Assembly: GCF_900142515.1 (NCBI RefSeq)
Contig: NZ_FRBC01000020.1
Location: 1-64,000 of the forward strand
Reading direction: 5' to 3'
Length of the DNA stretch: 64,000 bases
Source: Pseudoselenomonas ruminantium
Lineage (GTDB): Bacteria > Bacillota > Negativicutes > Selenomonadales > Selenomonadaceae
Part shown: piece after piece, positions 41,682-49,470 of the stretch
Layout of the letters: each line of letters begins with the position of its first letter
Numbering within the stretch: position 1 is the first letter of the stretch
The notes under the pieces: generated by a model
The model's database searches: none
What the model was told of the DNA's origin: nothing
Seen by the model: only the letters and a program-made list of their open reading frames with translations
Translations under genes and position numbers: made by a program

Positions 41682-41793
41682 GCTGGAAATTTCCCATCTA
41701 TGCTGTCTTTATGATATAATGCCGGTAAGGAAATATGGGGAATATCGAAATTGACATAATGATTATGAATGCATTGCTTATCAGGAGTGTAAA

Positions 41794-44700
41794 ATGGATA
41801 ATGAATTAGTCAAAGTCAAAATAACACAGGGGCTGCGTACTGCATTTGAAGACAGGTCCATTCAATCAGACTGTGAGTATCGGCCGCAATTTGTATTCAA
41901 TGATTTCCGCAAAGGGCGCAAAGTTTTGGCTTCATTAGAGCGCGAATTGGTTCATTGTGATTGTTTTGCGATTAGCGTGGCCTTTATCACAAAAAGTGGT
42001 TTGACGCCTTTGCTGACTGTTTTTCGAGATTTGGAGCGGCGAAATATTCGTGGCAGGATTATCACCACCGATTATTTATGCTTTAGTGAACCTGCTGCTT
42101 TGGCGCAGTTGCAGGAATTCAGCAACATTGAATTGCGTTTATATCATGCAGATAATCAAATCGGTTTTCATACGAAGGGGTATATTTTCCGGCGTGGCGA
42201 TATATATCGCATCATTGTGGGCAGTTCTAACCTTACAGCCAACGCTTTAACACGTAACGAAGAATGGAATACGCAGCTGATTTCACAGGCGCAGGGCGAA
42301 TATAGCTATTCCCTGGTTACCCGCTTTGAACAGTTATGGAATGACGAAAAATGTCTGGATTATCATTTGGTACAGGCAGATTACCAAAATGCCTATGCGC
42401 ACAATAAACGTGCCCAAATGCTTATGTATACGCCGTCAGCGGGAAAATCATCCTGCTATGATATTTCTGGTGAGGATGGTCTGGATGAATATGTGGCGGA
42501 ATCTTTGTCATCTGTCTATGGCCAAAAGTCAGCTTTAGTGACTTTAAATCCCAATGCGATGCAACGGGATTTTATCGAGAATATGCGGCAGTTGCAGGCG
42601 GTGGGGGCCAAGCGTGCTCTGTTGATTTCAGCTACGGGTACAGGGAAAACATATGCCTCAGCTTTTGCGGTAAAGGATTTTGCGCCACGCAGATTATTGT
42701 TCATCGTTCACCGTGAACAAATCGCCAAGCAGGCACTGAAAAGCTATCGCAAAGTTATCGGTGCTGGTGTAAGTATGGGCCTGTTATCCGGGACGAATAA
42801 GGATACGGAGGCAGAATATATTTTTTCCACAATGCAAACCATGGCCAAGGAAAATATATATACCCAATTCTCGCCGGATGCGTTTGATTATATCGTCATT
42901 GATGAAGTTCACCGTGCCGGGGCTGAGAGTTATCAGCGGATTATTAACTATTTCAAGCCCCGGATGTATTTGGGCATGACAGCTACTCCGGACCGCAGTG
43001 ATGGTTATGATATTTATAAGCTGTTCGATTACAATATTGCTTATGAAATCCGGCTGCAACAGGCACTGGAGGAAGACATGCTTTGTCCCTTCCATTATTT
43101 TGGCATTACCGATATCCAGTTAGCCGATAATCCCGAGGTGGAGGATGATAATCTGGCGAATTTTGCCCGCTTAACCAGCGATGAACGCGTACTGCATATT
43201 ATCAAGGAAGCTGGTTTCTATGGATTTAGTGGAAAGCGTGTAAAGGGACTGATTTTTTGCAGCCGCAATGAGGAAGCCGAAGAACTGTCACGAAAATTCA
43301 ATGAACAGGGGCTGCGCACAATCAACTTATCCGGCAGTAATAGCCAGGCGCAACGCGAAGAGGCAATTGACCGTCTGGTTTCAGATGAGCGTGCAGATTA
43401 TCTGGATTATATCTTTACTGTGGATATATTCAATGAAGGTGTGGATGTTCCAGAAATCAATCAGGTCATCATGCTCCGCCCCACGCAAAGCCCGATTGTC
43501 TTTATCCAGCAGTTGGGACGCGGTTTACGTCAGTACGCGGATAAAGAATATGTCGTCATTCTGGATTTTATTGGCAATTATTTAGGGAATAACTTCATGA
43601 TTCCTATGGCTCTAGCTGGTGACCGCAGCTATAACAAAGATAATATCCGCCGCTGTTTGCTGGAGGGTTCAAGGATTATTCCTGGCGCTTCCACCATTCA
43701 TTTTGATGAGATTGCCAAGAAGCGCATATTCCAATCCATAGATGCCACGAATATCAGCGACTTGCGCCGTATAAAAGAAAGCTATCAGAACCTGAAACAC
43801 AAACTGGGACGCATTCCAAAATTGCTGGATTTTGACCGTTATGGGGAGATGGATGTAATTTGTATCTTCCAGAATAAATCCTTAGGTTCTTACCATGCTT
43901 TTCTCAAAAAATACGATAAACGTGATTACAAGGTAAAATTCAACGACAAAGAGGAAATGTTCCTGAAATTCATTTCGATGAAATGGGCCGAAGGAAAGCG
44001 TCCTCATGAGCTGGAACTTTTAGATATTTTGCTAACAGAACCAATGGATATATTTCCGCGTTTGAAAGAACGGTTGCAAGATAAATGGCAAATCGGTTTT
44101 AAGTCCAATACGGTAACCAATCTGGTTAATATCATGACGGCTAATTTTATAACGGGGTCTGGGGCAAAATCGGTTAGTGACTGTATTTTTATTGAACAGC
44201 TTGCTGATGAATATGTTATAGCGGATGGTTTTGCAAAATGCCTGGCCAATGAGGTGTTTAAACAAGCCGTTGCGGAATTGGTGAAATTTGGCCTGCACCG
44301 TTATCAGCTGAATTACAGCAATCCATATAAGGATAGTGGCTTCCAGTTATATCAGAAATACGAATATGAAGATGTTTGCCGTATCTTAAATTGGGATCAG
44401 AATGTCGTACCCTTGAATATCGGCGGCTATAAGTATGATGATACAACTAAAACATTCCCTGTATTTATTAACTATGATAAGGGTGATGATGTGCAGGATT
44501 CGCTGAATTATCATGACCGCTTCATCAATAATTCACAGCTTATTTCCTTATCTAAAAATAAACGTACATTGCAATCGGATGATGTAACGCGCTTTCAGAA
44601 TGCAAAAGCATTGGGGATTGATGTGGACCTTTTCGTGCGCAAAAATAAAAACGACAATATAGCTAAAAGTTTTTATTATCTTGGCCGCATGACGATGGAA

Positions 44701-44817
44701 CGGGGCGAAGCCGTAAAGATGCAGGGGACTGGTGATGATGCTGTTGAAATGTTCTGGAATCTGGATGTTAGTGTACGGGAAGATATTTACGATTATATCA
44801 CCAGTGAAAATGCTTGA
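41794..44817 (+). CDS. PLD-nuclease/SF2 helicase/DUF3427 protein
   Basis: A 1007-residue multidomain protein. Residues about 20-200 form a phospholipase-D-like domain with FHTKGYIF (His126, Lys128) and GSSNLTANAL, a single HKD site that would need to dimerise. About 250-600 is a superfamily-2 helicase: Walker A ATGTGKT (280-286), motif II DEVH (370-373), TATPDR (about 395) and motif VI QQLGRGLRQY (about 572). The last about 350 residues fit DUF3427. Similar proteins are ResIII-like and occur in defence contexts; a DNA-targeting antiphage or repair role is inferred. It is more AT-rich than its neighbours and is followed 17 bp later by a MutT homologue. Confidence 0.85.
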   Translation: MDNELVKVKITQGLRTAFEDRSIQSDCEYRPQFVFNDFRKGRKVLASLERELVHCDCFAISVAFITKSGLTPLLTVFRDLERRNIRGRIITTDYLCFSEPAALAQLQEFSNIELRLYHADNQIGFHTKGYIFRRGDIYRIIVGSSNLTANALTRNEEWNTQLISQAQGEYSYSLVTRFEQLWNDEKCLDYHLVQADYQNAYAHNKRAQMLMYTPSAGKSSCYDISGEDGLDEYVAESLSSVYGQKSALVTLNPNAMQRDFIENMRQLQAVGAKRALLISATGTGKTYASAFAVKDFAPRRLLFIVHREQIAKQALKSYRKVIGAGVSMGLLSGTNKDTEAEYIFSTMQTMAKENIYTQFSPDAFDYIVIDEVHRAGAESYQRIINYFKPRMYLGMTATPDRSDGYDIYKLFDYNIAYEIRLQQALEEDMLCPFHYFGITDIQLADNPEVEDDNLANFARLTSDERVLHIIKEAGFYGFSGKRVKGLIFCSRNEEAEELSRKFNEQGLRTINLSGSNSQAQREEAIDRLVSDERADYLDYIFTVDIFNEGVDVPEINQVIMLRPTQSPIVFIQQLGRGLRQYADKEYVVILDFIGNYLGNNFMIPMALAGDRSYNKDNIRRCLLEGSRIIPGASTIHFDEIAKKRIFQSIDATNISDLRRIKESYQNLKHKLGRIPKLLDFDRYGEMDVICIFQNKSLGSYHAFLKKYDKRDYKVKFNDKEEMFLKFISMKWAEGKRPHELELLDILLTEPMDIFPRLKERLQDKWQIGFKSNTVTNLVNIMTANFITGSGAKSVSDCIFIEQLADEYVIADGFAKCLANEVFKQAVAELVKFGLHRYQLNYSNPYKDSGFQLYQKYEYEDVCRILNWDQNVVPLNIGGYKYDDTTKTFPVFINYDKGDDVQDSLNYHDRFINNSQLISLSKNKRTLQSDDVTRFQNAKALGIDVDLFVRKNKNDNIAKSFYYLGRMTMERGEAVKMQGTGDDAVEMFWNLDVSVREDIYDYITSENA

Positions 44818-44834
44818 TTTTGGGAGATGTGTGA

Positions 44835-45242
44835 ATGAAAACTATAAATGTAGTTGCCGCTGTAATAAAAAAAGGAAATAAAATTCTGGCTACCCAACGC
44901 GGTTATGGTGAATTCAAGGACGGCTGGGAGTTTCCTGGTGGTAAGATTGAAGCTGGAGAAACTCCTGCGGAAGCAATCGTCAGAGAAATAAAAGAAGAAC
45001 TCGATGCTAAAATCAAAGTGGAGGATAACCTCGGCCTTATCGAGTATGACTATCCTAATTTTCACTTACATATGGAATGTTTTTTATGCTCGCTGGTTTC
45101 AGCTGATCTGACATTGTTAGAACATGAGGATATGAAATGGCTTACTGCCGAAACTATGGACAACGTTGACTGGCTACCTGCAGATGTGGAAATGGCCAAA
45201 AAAGTACAGGAAATATTAAAAACAGAAGCTTTGTCCCAGTAA
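44835..45242 (+). CDS. MutT-like (d)NTP pyrophosphohydrolase
   Basis: 135 residues with a complete Nudix box (GGKIEAGETPAEAIVREIKE then EL). The N-terminal VVAAVIKKGNKILATQRGYG and C-terminal EDMKWLTAETMDNVDWLPAD are typical of the MutT/NudG branch that hydrolyses dCTP, CTP or oxidised dNTPs. It is 17 bp after the helicase gene with GGGAGATG as ribosome site, so the two are one unit. It may sanitise or deplete nucleotides together with the helicase-nuclease; that link is inferred. Confidence 0.9.
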   Translation: MKTINVVAAVIKKGNKILATQRGYGEFKDGWEFPGGKIEAGETPAEAIVREIKEELDAKIKVEDNLGLIEYDYPNFHLHMECFLCSLVSADLTLLEHEDMKWLTAETMDNVDWLPADVEMAKKVQEILKTEALSQ

Positions 45243-45751
45243 AAGTCCATGGATAATTTTATCCGCTGAACACGTCAAAGACACAACCAAAAGGCCCGCG
45301 CAAATGCGCGAGCCCTTGAATTCACTGGCAGAGAGGGGGGATTCGAACTTTCATCGGCCAGCCTTTTTGCCCGCCCTGATGTTATCCACTGGAGCGCACC
45401 TGACCCGTCAATCGCCAGCGGACTGGTCGGCTCCGCTCCTTTGTCCAGTCATCCGCTGCGCCGCCAAGATGCCGAGAACAACCGACAACGCTACGGCCTG
45501 CGGTGGCCGGATTGTAACGCGCGGGAGGTGCGTCTGCACGTCCCGCAAGTAGTTAATGGGCGGAAATAAACTTGAGGTGTCAGATTGGAGCCACAGGTTC
45601 AGAGATAAAAAGTAGCAGCGGGCGGCTGACCAGTCAAATGCCAGCAGCATGTGTACGATGGCGATATTGGGGAAATGTCGGATTTTATGACATTATGCGT
45701 TGATAAGGCTGACAGACCTAAGTAAACTGATTATAAAGGTGGCGTTGACTC
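45243..45751. other. Gap holding the left att remnant and unassigned sequence
   Basis: It holds the left att repeat (45288-45348) and then about 400 bp with no gene I can support. Two imperfect 22-bp direct repeats (45400-45421 and 45626-45647, 18 matches) lie here. A reverse open frame at 45408-45650 has one hydrophobic stretch but no ribosome site; it may be the remnant of a phage membrane protein. Confidence 0.4.
45288..45348 (-). repeat. Left attachment-site remnant (tRNA-Ser 3' end plus terminator)
   Basis: It matches 49344-49405 over about 60 nt with a few differences: the terminator stem (GCCCGCGCA...TGCGCGAGC), the encoded CCA (45326-45328), the acceptor and the T-loop (ATTCGAAC). 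The match stops at the T-arm and no tRNA body follows, as left by site-specific integration at a tRNA 3' end. Confidence 0.8.
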
Positions 45752-46066
45752 ATGCACGAAAGATTAAAGTTGGCTCGAAAGGCGTTGCATTTGACGCAGG
45801 AGTTTGTGGGCAATCAGATGGGGATGGCGCGGACGACGATTGTGGCCATCGAGTCGGGCAAGCGGGACGTCAGTGCCAGTGAACTGGCTGCTTTTGCGGA
45901 ACTGTATGGTATCTCTATGGATGAGCTTGTGCATGGAAGGGCACCGGCAGAGGGAAAGACGGCGCAGTTCGCCCGGGCGTTTGCGGAATTGCAAGCTATG
46001 GATCAGGCAGAAATCATCAATCTGATGCAGTTCAAGAAACGCTATCGGGAGCAGTTGAATGATTGA
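45752..46066 (+). CDS. XRE-family transcriptional regulator
   Basis: 104 residues: N-terminal Cro/C1-type HTH (RLKLARKALHLTQEFVGNQM...RTTIVAIESGKRDVSASEL, about 4-55) and a short helical C-terminal part. AAGGTGG precedes ATG 45752. In this setting it may be the element's repressor or an antitoxin; no toxin or metallopeptidase partner is intact next to it. Confidence 0.85.
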   Translation: MHERLKLARKALHLTQEFVGNQMGMARTTIVAIESGKRDVSASELAAFAELYGISMDELVHGRAPAEGKTAQFARAFAELQAMDQAEIINLMQFKKRYREQLND

Positions 46067-46130
46067 CTTATTGATAACGTGCCCTTAGTGGGTACCTGTA
46101 GCTATCGTATAAGGAGATTGAATATTGCAT

Positions 46131-46461
46131 ATGAAAGAAGATAGTGTTGTATCAAGTACTGAGCAATTACAGCTTATAAATACCATAAAGACTCAAATTC
46201 GTCAGGTTCAGTACCAGACCATTCTAAAGGTCAACAGTCTATTGGCAGATTGGTACGCTGTTGAATGAACATGTGGCTTACGGCAATTCTTTTGTCGATC
46301 GTCTGGCAGCGGAAATTGCCCATGATTTTCCGGGAGTAACGGGTTTTTCTGGGCGTAATCTGCGGTACATGAAGAAGTTTGCTGCAATTACGGATCAGGA
46401 GATTTTGCAGACACTGTCTGCACTTTTCGTATGCCTACATATTCATATATCCTGCCCGTAA
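46131..46461 (+). pseudogene. YhcG/DUF1016-type nuclease gene, frameshifted and truncated
   Basis: ATG 46131 with AAGGAG upstream opens a frame reading QLINTIKTQIRQVQYQTILK, the DUF1016 N-terminal domain of YhcG-like PD-(D/E)XK proteins. It shifts frame just before 46246 and continues as QIGTLLNEHVAYGNSFVDRL and FSGRNLRYMKKFAA, also DUF1016 N-domain, then is lost after about 46430. The C-terminal nuclease domain is absent. Bacterial DUF1016 genes often accompany restriction systems and mobile islands. Confidence 0.8.
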
Positions 46462-46721
46462 TCCATTACGCCCCGGGCGATGGCTCTGGCGATGTCTTCG
46501 CCGTGCAAGGTAAGGATACCGACGTCTTCGCTGTCGATAAAGCCGGTTTCGACGAGGACGGCTGGCATGGTGGTATGGCGCAGGACGCAGAAGGAGGGAT
46601 GGGCTTTGACACCGCGGTCTTTGTAGCCTTGGTCAAAGGGGGAGAGGCTGGCTACGAGCTGGTTTTGGATGGCTTGGGCGAGTCTTCCGCCCGCGCCGTT
46701 TTTGTCGTAGCAGTAGGTTTC
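46443..46721 (-). pseudogene. N-acetylmuramoyl-L-alanine amidase, C-terminal fragment
   Basis: The reverse frame encodes the C-terminal half of an Amidase_3 domain: ETYCYDKNGAGGRLAQAIQN, DRGVKAHPSFCVLRHTTMPA and VLVETGFIDSEDVG, including the conserved E of VETGF. The N-terminal zinc-binding half (DxGHGG) is missing, and the frame breaks at a C/G run near 46730. Probably a phage lysis or host wall amidase relic. Confidence 0.75.
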
Positions 46722-47259
46722 TGCGCCCCGCCCGCCTGGTAGGTGTCCTCGCCTTCGTGTTCGTGGGAGTAGACGGTATAGGTGCCGTCGCCGCGCAGGT
46801 CTTCGCTGATGTAGAGGCAGGCGCCCAGGGCGTTCATGCCGTTTTCGAACAGGCGGCGGCCGGCAATGGTGGCACAAGGTCAATGCCATCAAAGTCCAGC
46901 ATGGCATAGCGGGGCAGGATTTCCCGGGCCACATCCCAGGCCAGGCTGGCGTAGAGCTGGGCCCAGAGCCTTGCCATATGGCCATAGCCAAAATCCCCCA
47001 GGGCCAGCGAAATATCTAAGACATCGCCGCCGGACAGGTCAAAATCCGCCGTCAGGTCAAGAACATGGGGGGCGATATGCAGGGGCACCCGCAGACAGAG
47101 GCCCGCATCGGTCAGACGCTCAGCCAGCAACTGATGCCAATAGCCGGCCAGTGTCGGTTTGCCCGCAGGCGTCATGGCCAGCCCTTCTTCCCGTTCCAGA
47201 CAATCCCCGATATAAAGGGCCTGAGGCCCGTCAATCCGCACCTTTACGCTTTGTTCCAT
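46722..47259 (-). pseudogene. Phage-type protein of unknown function, frameshifted
   Basis: ATG 47259 with AAAGGAG upstream opens 141 codons (MEQSVKVRIDGPQALYIGDC...) to 46834. Comparing frames, the sense continues after a shift near 46868 as ATIAGRRLFENGMNALGACL and YSHEHEGEDTYQAGG up to about 46735. I do not recognise the family; its place beside an amidase relic suggests a phage structural or lysis-region gene. Confidence 0.5.
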
Positions 47260-47355
47260 ATTCGCTGCCACTCCTTTCTCGCAGACCATTGCCAGCCTGG
47301 CCACGGGCTGGCCGTTGACCAGTTCGCGGACCTTGACGCTCAGGATGCCAGCGAT

Positions 47356-47682
47356 AATCTGTTCCCCAAGCGGCTCAAATCCCTGCGGCAGGAAATTTCC
47401 CTGCGGCAGAGCGAGATGGCGCAAATCTTAGGGGTGCCCCTTACCACCTATGCCAACTGGGAGCAGGGACGTTCCTTTCCCAGCGTTGACCGCCTGCCGC
47501 GCATCGCGGCCTTCTTCGATGTGACCGTTGACTACCTCATTGGCGCCAATCGGAGCACCGTGAACCGCCGCATTGTTGAGCAGCTGGCCGTCCTCTCGCC
47601 GGAGCAGCGGCAGGCTGTGGAGTTAGTTTTATCCAGTATGAACAGCAGTAATAAAAGCAGCAACAAATCTAGTAATAAATGA
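47356..47682 (+). pseudogene. XRE-family regulator, apparently 5'-truncated
   Basis: Reading NLFPKRLKSLRQEISLRQ then MAQILGVPLTTYANWEQGRS gives a clear Cro/C1 HTH, followed by PRIAAFFDVTVDYLIGANR, normal for phage repressors, and an Asn/Ser/Lys-rich tail with a repeated SSNK unit. No ATG, GTG or TTG lies in frame near the HTH start, and the upstream sequence belongs to the opposite-strand gene, so a deletion probably joined the two around 47345-47356. Confidence 0.65.
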
Positions 47683-47800
47683 CCATAAGATTAGCGGTGT
47701 TTTGGCAGAACCTACCCACTACTATTAAATAGAAGGTTATGTCTTCTCATTGGGTTCGTCTTAGGGAGGCTGGGGGGCCTTGCGTCCCAAGGGTAAGCGG

Positions 47801-47949
47801 CTATCCACAGGGCACAATGTGCCCGCAGTTGTACCCACAGTTGTACCCGAAGATGTGCCTGCAATAGTACCAACATTGCCATTTATCCACCGGATAATCA
47901 CAAGAAATCCACAATTTATCCACATGGTTATCCACAGAAATGTGGATAA
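47801..47949. other. DnaA-box cluster with short iterons (possible origin)
   Basis: Three perfect DnaA boxes TTATCCACA: 47916-47924 and 47928-47936 (+) and 47941-47949 (reverse). Near matches are at 47801-47809 (CTATCCACA) and 47883-47891 (TTATCCACC). Two copies of CAGTTGTACCC lie at 47826-47847. The region is AT-rich between boxes and lies just upstream of the integrase gene. Confidence 0.7.
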
Positions 47950-47988
47950 GTCCACGCCTTTCCTGTGACTAGTAAGGAGTGACAGGAA

Positions 47989-49221
47989 ATGACAACGACA
48001 AAGAAAAAGGCACATCGTTGTGCCGGCGAAGGTTCGATTTACAAGGATAATACCCGTGACCGCTGGATCGCGCAGATAACCGTGGGCTTTGACGGGCGGA
48101 CTGGCCGCCTTATCAAGCGGACGAAATACACCCGCACCCGCAAGGATGCCCAAGCGGCTTTAGAGGAACTCAAGGAGAAATACGCAAGTCAGACGGCGCT
48201 TTTGGCCTGCAGCATGACGGTGGGCCAGTGGCTTGACCGCTGGTTTGATACCTATTCGCGGCCCCATATCCGGCAGAATACAGCGGCGGGGTATATGCTG
48301 ATGATAGACCTGGCCAAGGAATACGTGGGCAACATTGACCTTGGATTCTTGTGCAGTTTCGACCTGCAGAATATCATCAACAAGCGAATCTATGCCCACT
48401 ATCGGCAGGCCCAGTATTTCCGGACGGTCATGCGCATGGCTTTCCGGCGGGCGGTGAAGTTAAAGCTCATCCCCGAAAATCCCGCCGAGGATTTGGAACT
48501 CCCAAAGAAACCGCCGAAACGGCCCTTGGTGGCTCCCACCAAGGAACAGCGGGAGGCCCTCATTGAGGCCCCGTCCATCTATTACTGCTGGCGGCAGATG
48601 ATGCTCACGGAGTTCATGACAGGTTTGCGCCGCGGGGAACTTTTGGCCATTCATTGGGAGGATTCGAATTTGGACGAAGGCTGGTTTAAAGTCCGCCATG
48701 CCCTGGTCAACGGACGGAAGGAGGAGGGCATGGAAGCCTATCCCGTCTATTTGAGCGAGCCTAAGATGGAAAAGAGCCGCCGCCAGCTTTATCTGCCGCC
48801 CGCCCTTTGCAAGGAGCTTGCGGCCTACAAAGTCCGGCAGATGAAACTTCGCTTGCAGAATGGCCATTGGGAGCACCCCGAAATGGTGTTCACGGATAAG
48901 GATGGGGCCTACATCAGCCCCTGCGTCTTTTCCTCTCAATACGTCAAAATCCGCAAGAAACTGGGCATCAAGACCATCTTCCACATGCTGCGCCACGATA
49001 TGGCCAGCCGCATGAAGGCGTCCCACCAGTTTGACATCAAGGATATTCAGGAGCAGCTGGGCCACAGCACCATCCAAATTACTATGGATATTTATACAAA
49101 TATCAATGAAGAAAAAAGGCCGCAGTCAGCAGCTGGCTCCAGGACGACATGGAAAATGTCGTGGACTTCGGAGAATGTGATAAAAGTAAATCATACCAAC
49201 GGAAATGAAAAAAGGGGATGA
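47989..49221 (+). CDS. Tyrosine-family site-specific integrase, C-terminal frameshift
   Basis: A 410-codon phage/ICE-type integrase: N-terminal AP2-like arm-binding domain (GEGSIYKDNTRDRWIAQI, about 12-60), SAM-like core-binding domain (about 75-165) and catalytic domain with Arg214 (GLRRGELL), His332-x-x-Arg335 (HMLRH), LGHST (about 357) and nucleophile Tyr369 (MDIYTNI). All catalytic residues are present. After Tyr369 an A6 run (49112-49117) appears one base short: adding one A gives AAVSSWLQDDMENVVDFGE, a normal C-terminus. It lies beside the tRNA-Ser target site. Confidence 0.9.
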   Translation: MTTTKKKAHRCAGEGSIYKDNTRDRWIAQITVGFDGRTGRLIKRTKYTRTRKDAQAALEELKEKYASQTALLACSMTVGQWLDRWFDTYSRPHIRQNTAAGYMLMIDLAKEYVGNIDLGFLCSFDLQNIINKRIYAHYRQAQYFRTVMRMAFRRAVKLKLIPENPAEDLELPKKPPKRPLVAPTKEQREALIEAPSIYYCWRQMMLTEFMTGLRRGELLAIHWEDSNLDEGWFKVRHALVNGRKEEGMEAYPVYLSEPKMEKSRRQLYLPPALCKELAAYKVRQMKLRLQNGHWEHPEMVFTDKDGAYISPCVFSSQYVKIRKKLGIKTIFHMLRHDMASRMKASHQFDIKDIQEQLGHSTIQITMDIYTNINEEKRPQSAAGSRTTWKMSWTSENVIKVNHTNGNEKRG

Positions 49222-49342
49222 CCAGCGCAGAAAAATCTGCATGATCGTCCCAACCTGTCTGACGGAAAAATGACCTTTGACGCCCTTTGGCGTCAAAATC
49301 ATTGCCCGCCTGTTGCCCGCAGCGCACCCAAAAAACACGCAC

Positions 49343-49372
49343 AAAAAAAGCCCGCGCAATCGCGCGAGCCCT
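49343..49372 (-). terminator. Terminator of tRNA-Ser (right att region)
   Basis: On the reverse strand GGCTCGCGCG-ATT-GCGCGGGC followed by TTTTTTT. Confidence 0.9.
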
Positions 49373-49405
49373 TGATTTCACTGGCAGAGAGGGTGGGATT
49401 CGAAC
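49344..49405 (-). repeat. Right attachment-site copy
   Basis: The right direct repeat, comprising the tRNA-Ser terminator and the 3' part of the gene (acceptor, T-arm); partner of 45288-45348. Confidence 0.8.
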
Positions 49406-49470
49406 CCACGGTGGCTATTAACCACACTTGATTTCGAGTCAAGCACCTTCGACCACTCGGACACCTCTCC
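49382..49470 (-). tRNA. tRNA-Ser (anticodon CGA)
   Basis: An 89-nt class II tRNA on the reverse strand: acceptor GGAGAGG, anticodon stem CTTGA/TCAAG around CTCGAAA (anticodon CGA), a long variable arm (GTGGTTAATAGCCAC), T-arm GGTTCGAATCC and encoded CCA. It is the integration target of the element to its left. Confidence 0.96.

What the first reader, a model, noticed from the sequence alone, without database searches (positions are those of the whole stretch)
41794..45242. PLD-nuclease/helicase/DUF3427 gene coupled to a MutT hydrolase, next to an integration hotspot
Seen: a 1007-aa protein with a PLD-like HxK/GSSNLT site, a full SF2 helicase core and a DUF3427-like C-terminus, then a MutT 17 bp later. 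The pair is more AT-rich than neighbouring genes and abuts an element integrated at tRNA-Ser. Nuclease-helicase fusions at such sites are often antiphage systems; a Nudix partner suggests nucleotide sensing or depletion. This is the best candidate here for a little-described defence system.
Basis: partly seen in the sequence, partly recalled or inferred. Interest (0 to 1): 0.68.

Follow-up and report, generated by a model that had tools for sequence, protein, structure and literature searches.

The report
Methyl-DNA cutter with nucleotide-cleaning partner
This bacterial gene pair encodes a known kind of enzyme that shreds DNA carrying methylated cytosine, plus a small enzyme that probably destroys methylated-cytosine building blocks, perhaps so that the cell never builds into its own DNA the mark that its defence attacks.

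Summary
The 1007-aa gene is a full-length homologue of SauUSI, the crystallised ATP-dependent type IV restriction enzyme for 5-methyl- and 5-hydroxymethylcytosine DNA, so that half is known. The surprise is the "MutT". A Nudix gene lies within 300 nt of 65 of the 80 best-matching SauUSI-like genes and 1 nt upstream of S. aureus SauUSI itself. In one sample it accompanies 14 of 16 SauUSI-type enzymes but 0 of 40 similar nuclease-helicases lacking the DUF3427/SRA reader. Relatives are adjacent or fused to SRA-HNH type IV enzymes, another architecture: 10 of 17 places. The nearest solved Nudix, nested among SauUSI-linked ones, hydrolyses 5-methyl- and 5-hydroxymethyl-dCTP at about 4.5 million per M per s. 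Proposed: the Nudix clears modified dCTP, so the cell does not incorporate the mark its own enzyme attacks. Adjacency was noted in print without this explanation. Against: 7 of 15 family members lack the Nudix, McrBC lacks it (1 of 63), SauUSI works alone in E. coli, and no window protein was assayed.

The parts
41794..44817 (+). SauUSI-type type IV restriction enzyme, 1007 aa (PLD nuclease - SF2 ATPase - coupler - DUF3427/SRA reader)
   Evidence: PADLOC PDLC03658 694.5 bits over 10-1003; PDB 7clg_A 676.5 bits over 11-1003; Pfam domains
42169..42177 (+). PLD active-site HTK, residues 126-128 (SauUSI H119, K121)
   Evidence: H and K in 78 of 78 family members; SauUSI residues from PMC7913695 section 24
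42220..42237 (+). GSSNLT, residues 143-148, second half of the PLD site
   Evidence: G143, S144, N146, T148 invariant in alignment A1 of 19
42634..42651 (+). Walker A TGTGKT, residues 281-286 (K285)
42901..42912 (+). Walker B / DEVH box, residues 370-373
   Evidence: D370, E371, H373 invariant in A1
43969..44802 (+). DUF3427, residues 726-1003; its C-terminal part is the SRA-fold modified-cytosine reader in SauUSI
   Evidence: Pfam 264 bits; pocket residues D908, F891, Y881, I892 equal SauUSI D858, F841, Y831, I842
44835..45242 (+). Nudix hydrolase, 135 aa, predicted 5-methyl/5-hydroxymethyl-dCTP pyrophosphohydrolase (PADLOC PDC-S07)
   Evidence: PDC-S07 166.7 bits; nearest solved relative 3gwy; tree
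44940..45008 (+). Nudix box, residues 36-58
   Evidence: G36, E42, R50, E51, E54, E55 in 71 of 71 Nudix proteins lying within 4 kb of a SauUSI-like gene
45183..45185 (+). Asp117, aligned with Asp118 of E. coli NudG and with Asn119 of MutT
   Evidence: position; the role in base recognition is recalled, from no call
45277..45340 (.). outer boundary, not part of the pair: terminator plus tRNA-Ser 3'-end repeat that closes the neighbouring element
   Evidence: repeat D1 with 49333-49396

Best explanation
The pair is a mobile two-gene type IV restriction unit. Step 1 (shown by homology): the large protein is a SauUSI-type enzyme; it should recognise 5mC/5hmC by base flipping into its SRA pocket, translocate on ATP and shred the DNA with its PLD nuclease dimer. 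Step 2 (inferred from relatives): the Nudix splits 5-methyl-dCTP and 5-hydroxymethyl-dCTP to monophosphate and pyrophosphate. Step 3 (inferred): because modified dCTP, from salvaged phage or foreign DNA or from turnover of m5C in RNA, would otherwise be built into the chromosome and make it a target, the Nudix is a self-protection factor acting on the nucleotide pool. My probabilities: step 1 0.93, step 2 0.75, step 3 0.45.
For: SauUSI identity; pocket and catalytic residues. Pairing: Nudix within 300 nt in 65 of 80 best genome hits (44 downstream same strand, 16 upstream same strand, 5 downstream convergent); 14 of 16 SauUSI-type vs 0 of 40 PLD-helicases without DUF3427 (Fisher p 2e-11); S. 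aureus SauUSI itself has it 1 nt upstream, and that Nudix is the PDB 5x1x protein or nearly so. Different architecture: SRA-HNH enzymes adjacent or fused in 10 of 17 places; six fused ORFs inspected (five of them also). Substrate match: 3gwy, best sequence and fold match and nested among SauUSI-linked Nudix, takes 5-Me-dCTP 4.8e6 and 5-hydroxymethyl-dCTP 4.4e6 M-1 s-1 (PMC5158307); SauUSI and TagI cut 5mC and 5hmC but not glucosylated 5hmC. The window genome has no C5-methyltransferase (PF00145) hit; hosts of the enzyme have fewer than chosen others, 7 of 28 vs 25 of 50. PDC-S07 and RM type IV co-localise in 23 of 23 S. suis cases (PMC12813430).
Against: No assay of either window protein. SauUSI alone is active in vitro and as a clone in E. 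coli (PMC3874153 passage), so the partner is not needed for cutting and its absence is tolerated there (E. coli has its own NudG). In the window's own family only 8 of 15 full-length homologues have the Nudix within the roughly 1.5-kb flanks seen; the 7 without are in two genera. Divergent DUF3427 enzymes: 7 of 25. McrBC, another family with 5mC-dependent members, has no link (1 of 63), so not every such enzyme needs it. Asp117 is also in 19 of 19 unlinked Nudix, so it marks the subfamily, not the partnership. SauUSI W868 is S918 here and E126 is R133. C5-methyltransferases do occur in some hosts, and within the family the depletion is not significant (4 of 15 vs 18 of 34, p 0.12). Nothing shown here tells self-protection from phage starvation.
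Confidence: 0.5

Rival explanations
1. The Nudix is itself an antiphage arm: it drains 5-hydroxymethyl- or 5-methyl-dCTP made by phages with fully modified DNA, starving their replication, while the restriction enzyme cuts what has been made.
For: Same substrate evidence. SRA-HNH-Nudix pairs are common in the viral-contig collection, presumably prophages: 20 of 29 Nudix loci with at least 100 bits.
Against: Less modification would also help such a phage to escape the linked enzyme (inference). Several of those viral loci are near copies of each other (one search shows repeated neighbours).
Confidence: 0.25
2. An ordinary MutT/NudG-type housekeeping gene (oxidised nucleotides) that happens to travel with the restriction gene.
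For: TIGR00586 MutT is the top NCBIfam hit (85.9 bits). Homologues occur away from any such enzyme.
Against: Below the MutT cut-off of 97.9 bits. Asp, not Asn, at the aligned MutT Asn119 position. 14 of 16 vs 0 of 40, several gene orders and fusions do not look like hitch-hiking.
Confidence: 0.12
3. The Nudix is a sensor or regulator of the nuclease: modified dCTP or another nucleotide is the infection signal that it reads or removes.
For: Fusion in one chain with SRA-HNH nucleases. A review raises pool monitoring in general (PMC12707154, passage).
Against: Nudix box complete in 71 of 71, so an active enzyme is expected. SauUSI cleaves as a single polypeptide (PMC3874153).
Confidence: 0.1

Closest known systems
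SauUSI (Staphylococcus aureus; PDB 7clg)
   Same: Full-length match, same four domains, catalytic H and K, most pocket residues. Also has the Nudix, 1 nt upstream.
   Different: W868 to S918 and E126 to R133. Nudix downstream here, upstream there.
Bacteroides fragilis Q5LBB1 / PDB 3gwy, 5-methyl-(d)CTP hydrolase
   Same: Best sequence and fold match of the Nudix; nested among SauUSI-linked Nudix proteins.
   Different: 42-43% identity in the fold alignment; its own gene neighbourhood was not examined.
TagI-type SRA-HNH type IV enzymes
   Same: Reads 5mC/5hmC but not glucosylated 5hmC; often linked or fused to the same Nudix kind.
   Different: HNH nuclease, no ATPase motor.
PADLOC candidate PDC-S07
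   Same: The window Nudix matches it over residues 1-126.
   Different: PADLOC holds it as a candidate under its own name; that the letter S means a one-gene system is recalled. Here it is read as the partner of a type IV enzyme.
E. coli NudG (Orf135)
   Same: Nudix fold, Asp at the aligned 118 position; 5-methyl-dCTP is listed as its likely substrate (PMC5158307).
   Different: Far in sequence (52.6 bits); placed outside the SauUSI-linked clade, on a long branch whose place is unsure.

Membership tests
SauUSI-type type IV restriction enzyme | PLD nuclease with HxK and second-site Asn | tested here: met
   H126, K128, GSSNLT; PLDc_2 35.5 bits, cut-off 27
SauUSI-type type IV restriction enzyme | SF2 helicase-like ATPase | tested here: met
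   ResIII and Helicase_C; K285 invariant in A1
SauUSI-type type IV restriction enzyme | C-terminal DUF3427 with SRA pocket | tested here: met
   264 bits; Y, F, I, D pocket residues kept; the fold of this protein was not modelled
SauUSI-type type IV restriction enzyme | pocket Trp868 and E126 of the HxKx4E motif | tested here: not met
   S918 and R133; but W in only 16 and E in only 4 of 78 family members, so not defining for the family
SauUSI-type type IV restriction enzyme | cuts Sm5CNGS or Shm5CNGS DNA with ATP | not testable with these tools
   needs enzyme assay
5-methyl/5-hydroxymethyl-dCTP pyrophosphohydrolase (Q5LBB1/NudG kind) | complete Nudix box | tested here: met
5-methyl/5-hydroxymethyl-dCTP pyrophosphohydrolase (Q5LBB1/NudG kind) | groups with the assayed enzyme 3gwy | tested here: met
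   42-row clade, 100/99, holds the window Nudix, 3gwy and 5x1x; few columns, bootstrap not settled
5-methyl/5-hydroxymethyl-dCTP pyrophosphohydrolase (Q5LBB1/NudG kind) | hydrolyses 5-modified dCTP in preference to dCTP | not testable with these tools
   needs enzyme assay
MutT (8-oxo-dGTP diphosphatase) | NCBIfam TIGR00586 score over 97.9 | tested here: not met
   85.9 bits
NudG equivalog (NCBIfam PRK10546) | score over 156 | tested here: not met
   77.8 bits

The most novel reading that the evidence does not exclude
SRA-type type IV restriction is in general a two-component trade: the nuclease attacks modified cytosine in DNA, and a dedicated Nudix (in a few loci with a MazG-like enzyme too) keeps modified cytosine out of the cell's own dNTP pool, an immunity factor that acts on the precursors, where the methyltransferase of a type II system acts on the DNA. 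PDC-S07 is then an antidote rather than a separate defence.
Probability: 0.4. Interest if true: 0.78.

Novelty: new variant of a known kind. Interest (0 to 1): 0.62.

Why it matters
Type IV enzymes are usually held to need no partner, because the host simply lacks the modification (general knowledge, not from a call). A conserved, sometimes overlapping or fused, modified-dCTP hydrolase would mean that these enzymes do threaten their host, and that safety is ensured at the nucleotide pool. It gives a function to PADLOC's PDC-S07 and to the S. aureus 'MutT' whose structure (5x1x) is solved, and it turns an old question, how hosts of 5mC-directed nucleases tolerate modified nucleotides, into a simple deletion-and-feeding experiment. 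It also matters for DNA transfer, since SauUSI is called a major barrier to it in S. aureus (PMC7913695, title and abstract).

Tried and rejected
Reading the large gene as a new defence gene: rejected. Reading the Nudix as plain MutT: (below cut-off). Pair as cargo of the tRNA-Ser element: rejected, the repeats bracket 45.3-49.4 kb only. Asp117 as a mark of linked Nudix: rejected, unlinked ones have it too. McrBC as a third linked family: rejected, 1 of 63, and that one lies beside a divergent DUF3427 gene. EVE domain beside the Nudix in L190 and L351: not supported by Pfam; only a shared N-terminal stretch with HNH_2 proteins was found. Looking for Vsr-Nudix relatives in viral contigs: of 61 loci the reported matches lie in the Vsr half or in the Nudix half, none spans both. 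Promoter scan: as many hits as in shuffles, not used. A survey of Staphylococcales was planned and not run.
Full report
OBSERVATION. Both genes are present as described: 41794-44817 (1007 aa) and 44835-45242 (135 aa), same strand, 17 nt apart. The large protein has PLDc_2, ResIII, Helicase_C and a complete DUF3427; the small one NUDIX. GC is 42.5% and 40.0% against 50.6% for the window. A direct repeat of the tRNA-Ser 3' end and its terminator (45277-45340 and 49333-49396, 84%) bounds the element with the integrase at 47989-49221. The pair lies just outside it.

MOBILITY. A full-length homologue is in 2 of 22 genomes of the genus, the window's own and G006. In two relatives with the syntenic kinase gene (L345, L346), window 37.6 kb is followed within about 290 nt by window 49.6 kb, so 12 kb including the pair is missing at that place; two further relatives (L347, L348) align only from 49.6 kb on. 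G006 carries the pair on another contig: of the 18 kb of window compared, only 41790-45208 aligns with its 13.6-kb locus (75% of bases). G006 has the same match coordinates and contig length as the public Selenomonas ruminantium S137 record L076, so the window is very probably from a Selenomonas.

WHAT THE LARGE GENE IS. PADLOC mREase_IV PDLC03658 matches over 10-1003 with 694.5 bits, and the SauUSI crystal chain 7clg over 11-1003 with 676.5 bits. According to PMC7913695 (abstract and two sections read), SauUSI is a PLD nuclease dimer with an SF2 ATPase, a coupler and an SRA domain modelled to flip 5-methylcytosine; it translocates and shreds DNA. PMC3874153 (passages) lists cleavage of m5C and hm5C and none of glucosylated hm5C, and says that the single polypeptide suffices in vitro and as a clone in E. 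coli. Among 78 family members with a frame over 850 aa, H119 and K121 are invariant, F841 in 77, D858 in 75, Y831 in 53 (F in 18); W868 is W in only 16 and E126 E in only 4. The window has H126, K128, F891, D908, Y881, but S918 and R133.

THE PARTNER IS THE NEW POINT. A Nudix lies within 300 nt in 65 of 80: 44 downstream on the same strand, 16 upstream on the same strand, 5 downstream convergent. Five more are 301-3826 nt away. Ten show none, of which five have a contig end within 350 nt. Hosts with the pair include Methanobrevibacter, a Spirochaetales MAG and a Duodenibacillus MAG. In PLSDB six records hold a SauUSI-like gene; five were opened: in L341-L343 a gene annotated as (deoxy)nucleoside triphosphate pyrophosphohydrolase is directly upstream, the S. 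aureus record L356 has it too, a Fusobacterium record has none; the sixth was not opened.

CONTROL. In 398 genomes drawn evenly from the phylum, regions with up to 5 kb on each side were fetched and classed with profiles made here (recounted). SauUSI-type, full length: 14 of 16 have a Nudix within 300 nt (window included; one 475-aa fragment, L274, with a Nudix 1562 nt away, and G006, which is outside the sample, set aside). Divergent DUF3427 enzymes of about 1050 aa: 7 of 25. PLD-helicases, mostly of about 800 aa, without DUF3427: 0 of 40 (two rows set aside, L253|762 and L263|4521; six of the 40 have under 350 nt on one side; absence of DUF3427 was judged by my profile and checked with Pfam for one, L036). 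Fisher p 2e-11 for the first against the last. So the Nudix follows the modified-base reader, not the nuclease-motor. In the window's own family the rate is lower: 8 of 15, the misses all in genera g3 and g5, with flanks of about 1.5 kb.

A SECOND ARCHITECTURE. Starting from the Nudix profile A2 (116 of 398 genomes at E 1e-20), I looked at neighbours of 20 chosen places and found SRA-HNH proteins (SAD_SRA sub-threshold in one, HNH in others; PADLOC mREase_IV PDLC03656). Of 17 SRA-HNH places in the same genomes, 6 have the Nudix next to them on the same strand (in G221 a transposase-like gene splits the nuclease gene) and 4 are fused with it in one frame; 7 are not linked. Two more fused frames came up from the Nudix side. 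All six fused ORFs, L306-L311, were read. Pfam finds NUDIX in all six and HNH in four; the five scanned with PADLOC (all but L307) have PDC-S07 plus PDLC03656 in one chain. L306 matches TagI 6ghc in the HNH part and, weakly, ScoMcrA 5zmn in the N-terminal part. McrC, in the same genomes, is near a Nudix in 1 of 63 places. In viral contigs, 20 of 29 Nudix loci with at least 100 bits have an SRA-HNH neighbour or fusion against 1 of 49 weaker ones (2 of the 80 gave no ORF; several rows are near copies). TagI cuts 5mC and 5hmC but not glucosylated 5hmC (PMC6212794, passages).

SUBSTRATE. The nearest solved relative of the window Nudix is 3gwy by sequence and by the fold of an AlphaFold2 model (pLDDT 95.2); next by fold is M. 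smegmatis MutT2 with 5mdCTP (5zro). In PMC5158307 (passages) this B. fragilis enzyme gives kcat/Km 4.8e6 for 5-Me-dCTP, 4.4e6 for 5-hydroxymethyl-dCTP, 6.7e6 for 5-Me-CTP and 8.5e4 for 5-OH-dCTP (M-1 s-1). In a tree of 76 Nudix rows, 33 of the 34 SauUSI-linked rows, the window's among them, fall with 3gwy and 5x1x in one 42-row clade (100/99) that also holds 5 unlinked rows and 2 linked to divergent DUF3427 genes; 3gwy is nested among linked ones (97/88). Rows linked to divergent DUF3427 or to SRA-HNH enzymes are scattered, needing at least 7 and 4 changes, which suggests repeated recruitment. The alignment has few columns and the bootstrap had not settled. The S. aureus-type Nudix next to SauUSI is 120 of 124 identical to 5x1x in L340, and in L356 a Nudix of the same kind sits 1 nt before a gene that begins as SauUSI. 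The enzyme's DNA targets and the Nudix relative's substrates are thus the same two modifications.

HOST METHYLATION. The window genome has no PF00145 match, while 10 of 14 control genomes ring. Genomes with a SauUSI-type gene have one in 7 of 28 (6 over the curated cut-off), 50 others chosen by me in 25 of 50 (p 0.03). The others lack a SauUSI-type gene, though some have a divergent DUF3427 gene; the test is not corrected for kinship; within the family it is 4 of 15 vs 18 of 34, p 0.12.

MECHANISM. Shown by homology: a modification-directed, ATP-driven nuclease. Inferred from close relatives: a pyrophosphohydrolase for 5-methyl- and 5-hydroxymethyl-dCTP. Inferred from logic only: the Nudix keeps these out of the host chromosome so that the nuclease has no self targets. 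Sources of such dCTP could be salvage of shredded DNA or of m5C from RNA (possibilities, not tested). The main rival is starvation of phages that use modified dCTP.

WHAT IS IN PRINT. PMC7641849 (passage and section 11) says in a figure legend that small proteins beside Streptococcus SauUSI homologues are MutT homologues; no function is discussed in that section. PMC12813430 (passages) reports PDC-S07 and RM type IV co-localised in 23 of 23 cases in S. suis; in its held main text neither 'Nudix' nor 'MutT' occurs. Searches SauUSI+Nudix (one paper, passages), SRA+HNH+Nudix+restriction (two papers, passages of one), type IV restriction+Nudix (two papers, listing only) and SauUSI/MutT/pyrophosphohydrolase (40 of 135 listed) showed no paper that proposes the modified-dCTP role. 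Most subscription papers are not in the library, and the original SauUSI paper is not held.

VERDICT. A known kind of restriction enzyme with an overlooked, widespread and probably functional nucleotide-cleaning partner.

Noticed in passing
L353:5001-5990: Collinsella aerofaciens record: one 329-aa protein joins this kind of Nudix to a Vsr endonuclease (the enzyme of 5mC deamination repair, recalled); Pfam NUDIX and Vsr both over cut-off.
   Followed up: partly
L342:3553-8948, L357:4007-7913, L203:3616-6662: Recurrent set: Nudix, a modified-base-directed protein (SauUSI-like, MrcB_N, or SRA-HNH), a Schlafen-group-3 helicase, and in L342 and L357 a MazG-like pyrophosphohydrolase.
   Followed up: partly
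L115:3754-8922: A Bacteroidales SauUSI-like gene without a Nudix lies near a C5 cytosine methyltransferase gene (PF00145, 250 bits), an apparent conflict.
   Followed up: no
L132:5543-9339: One SauUSI-like gene flanked by two different Nudix genes, one on each side.
   Followed up: no
L190:5841-6371, L351:5450-5980: A 176-aa protein beside an unlinked Nudix shares about 145 residues with the N-terminal half of HNH_2 nucleases that also lie beside the Nudix in L444 and L354; Pfam knows no domain in it. Possibly an undescribed modified-base reader.
   Followed up: partly
L116:6001-8943: In Mycoplasma testudinis the SauUSI-like gene is split into several frames under table 11, perhaps because TGA is read as Trp; the Nudix search there used table 11 only.
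   Followed up: no
window 45277-49407: Small tRNA-Ser element: tyrosine integrase, HTH gene, and an amidase-like reading frame; looks like a remnant.
   Followed up: partly
L271:4242-6677 (own genome, contig C38): The window genome also has an 811-aa PLD-helicase without DUF3427 and without a Nudix neighbour.
   Followed up: no
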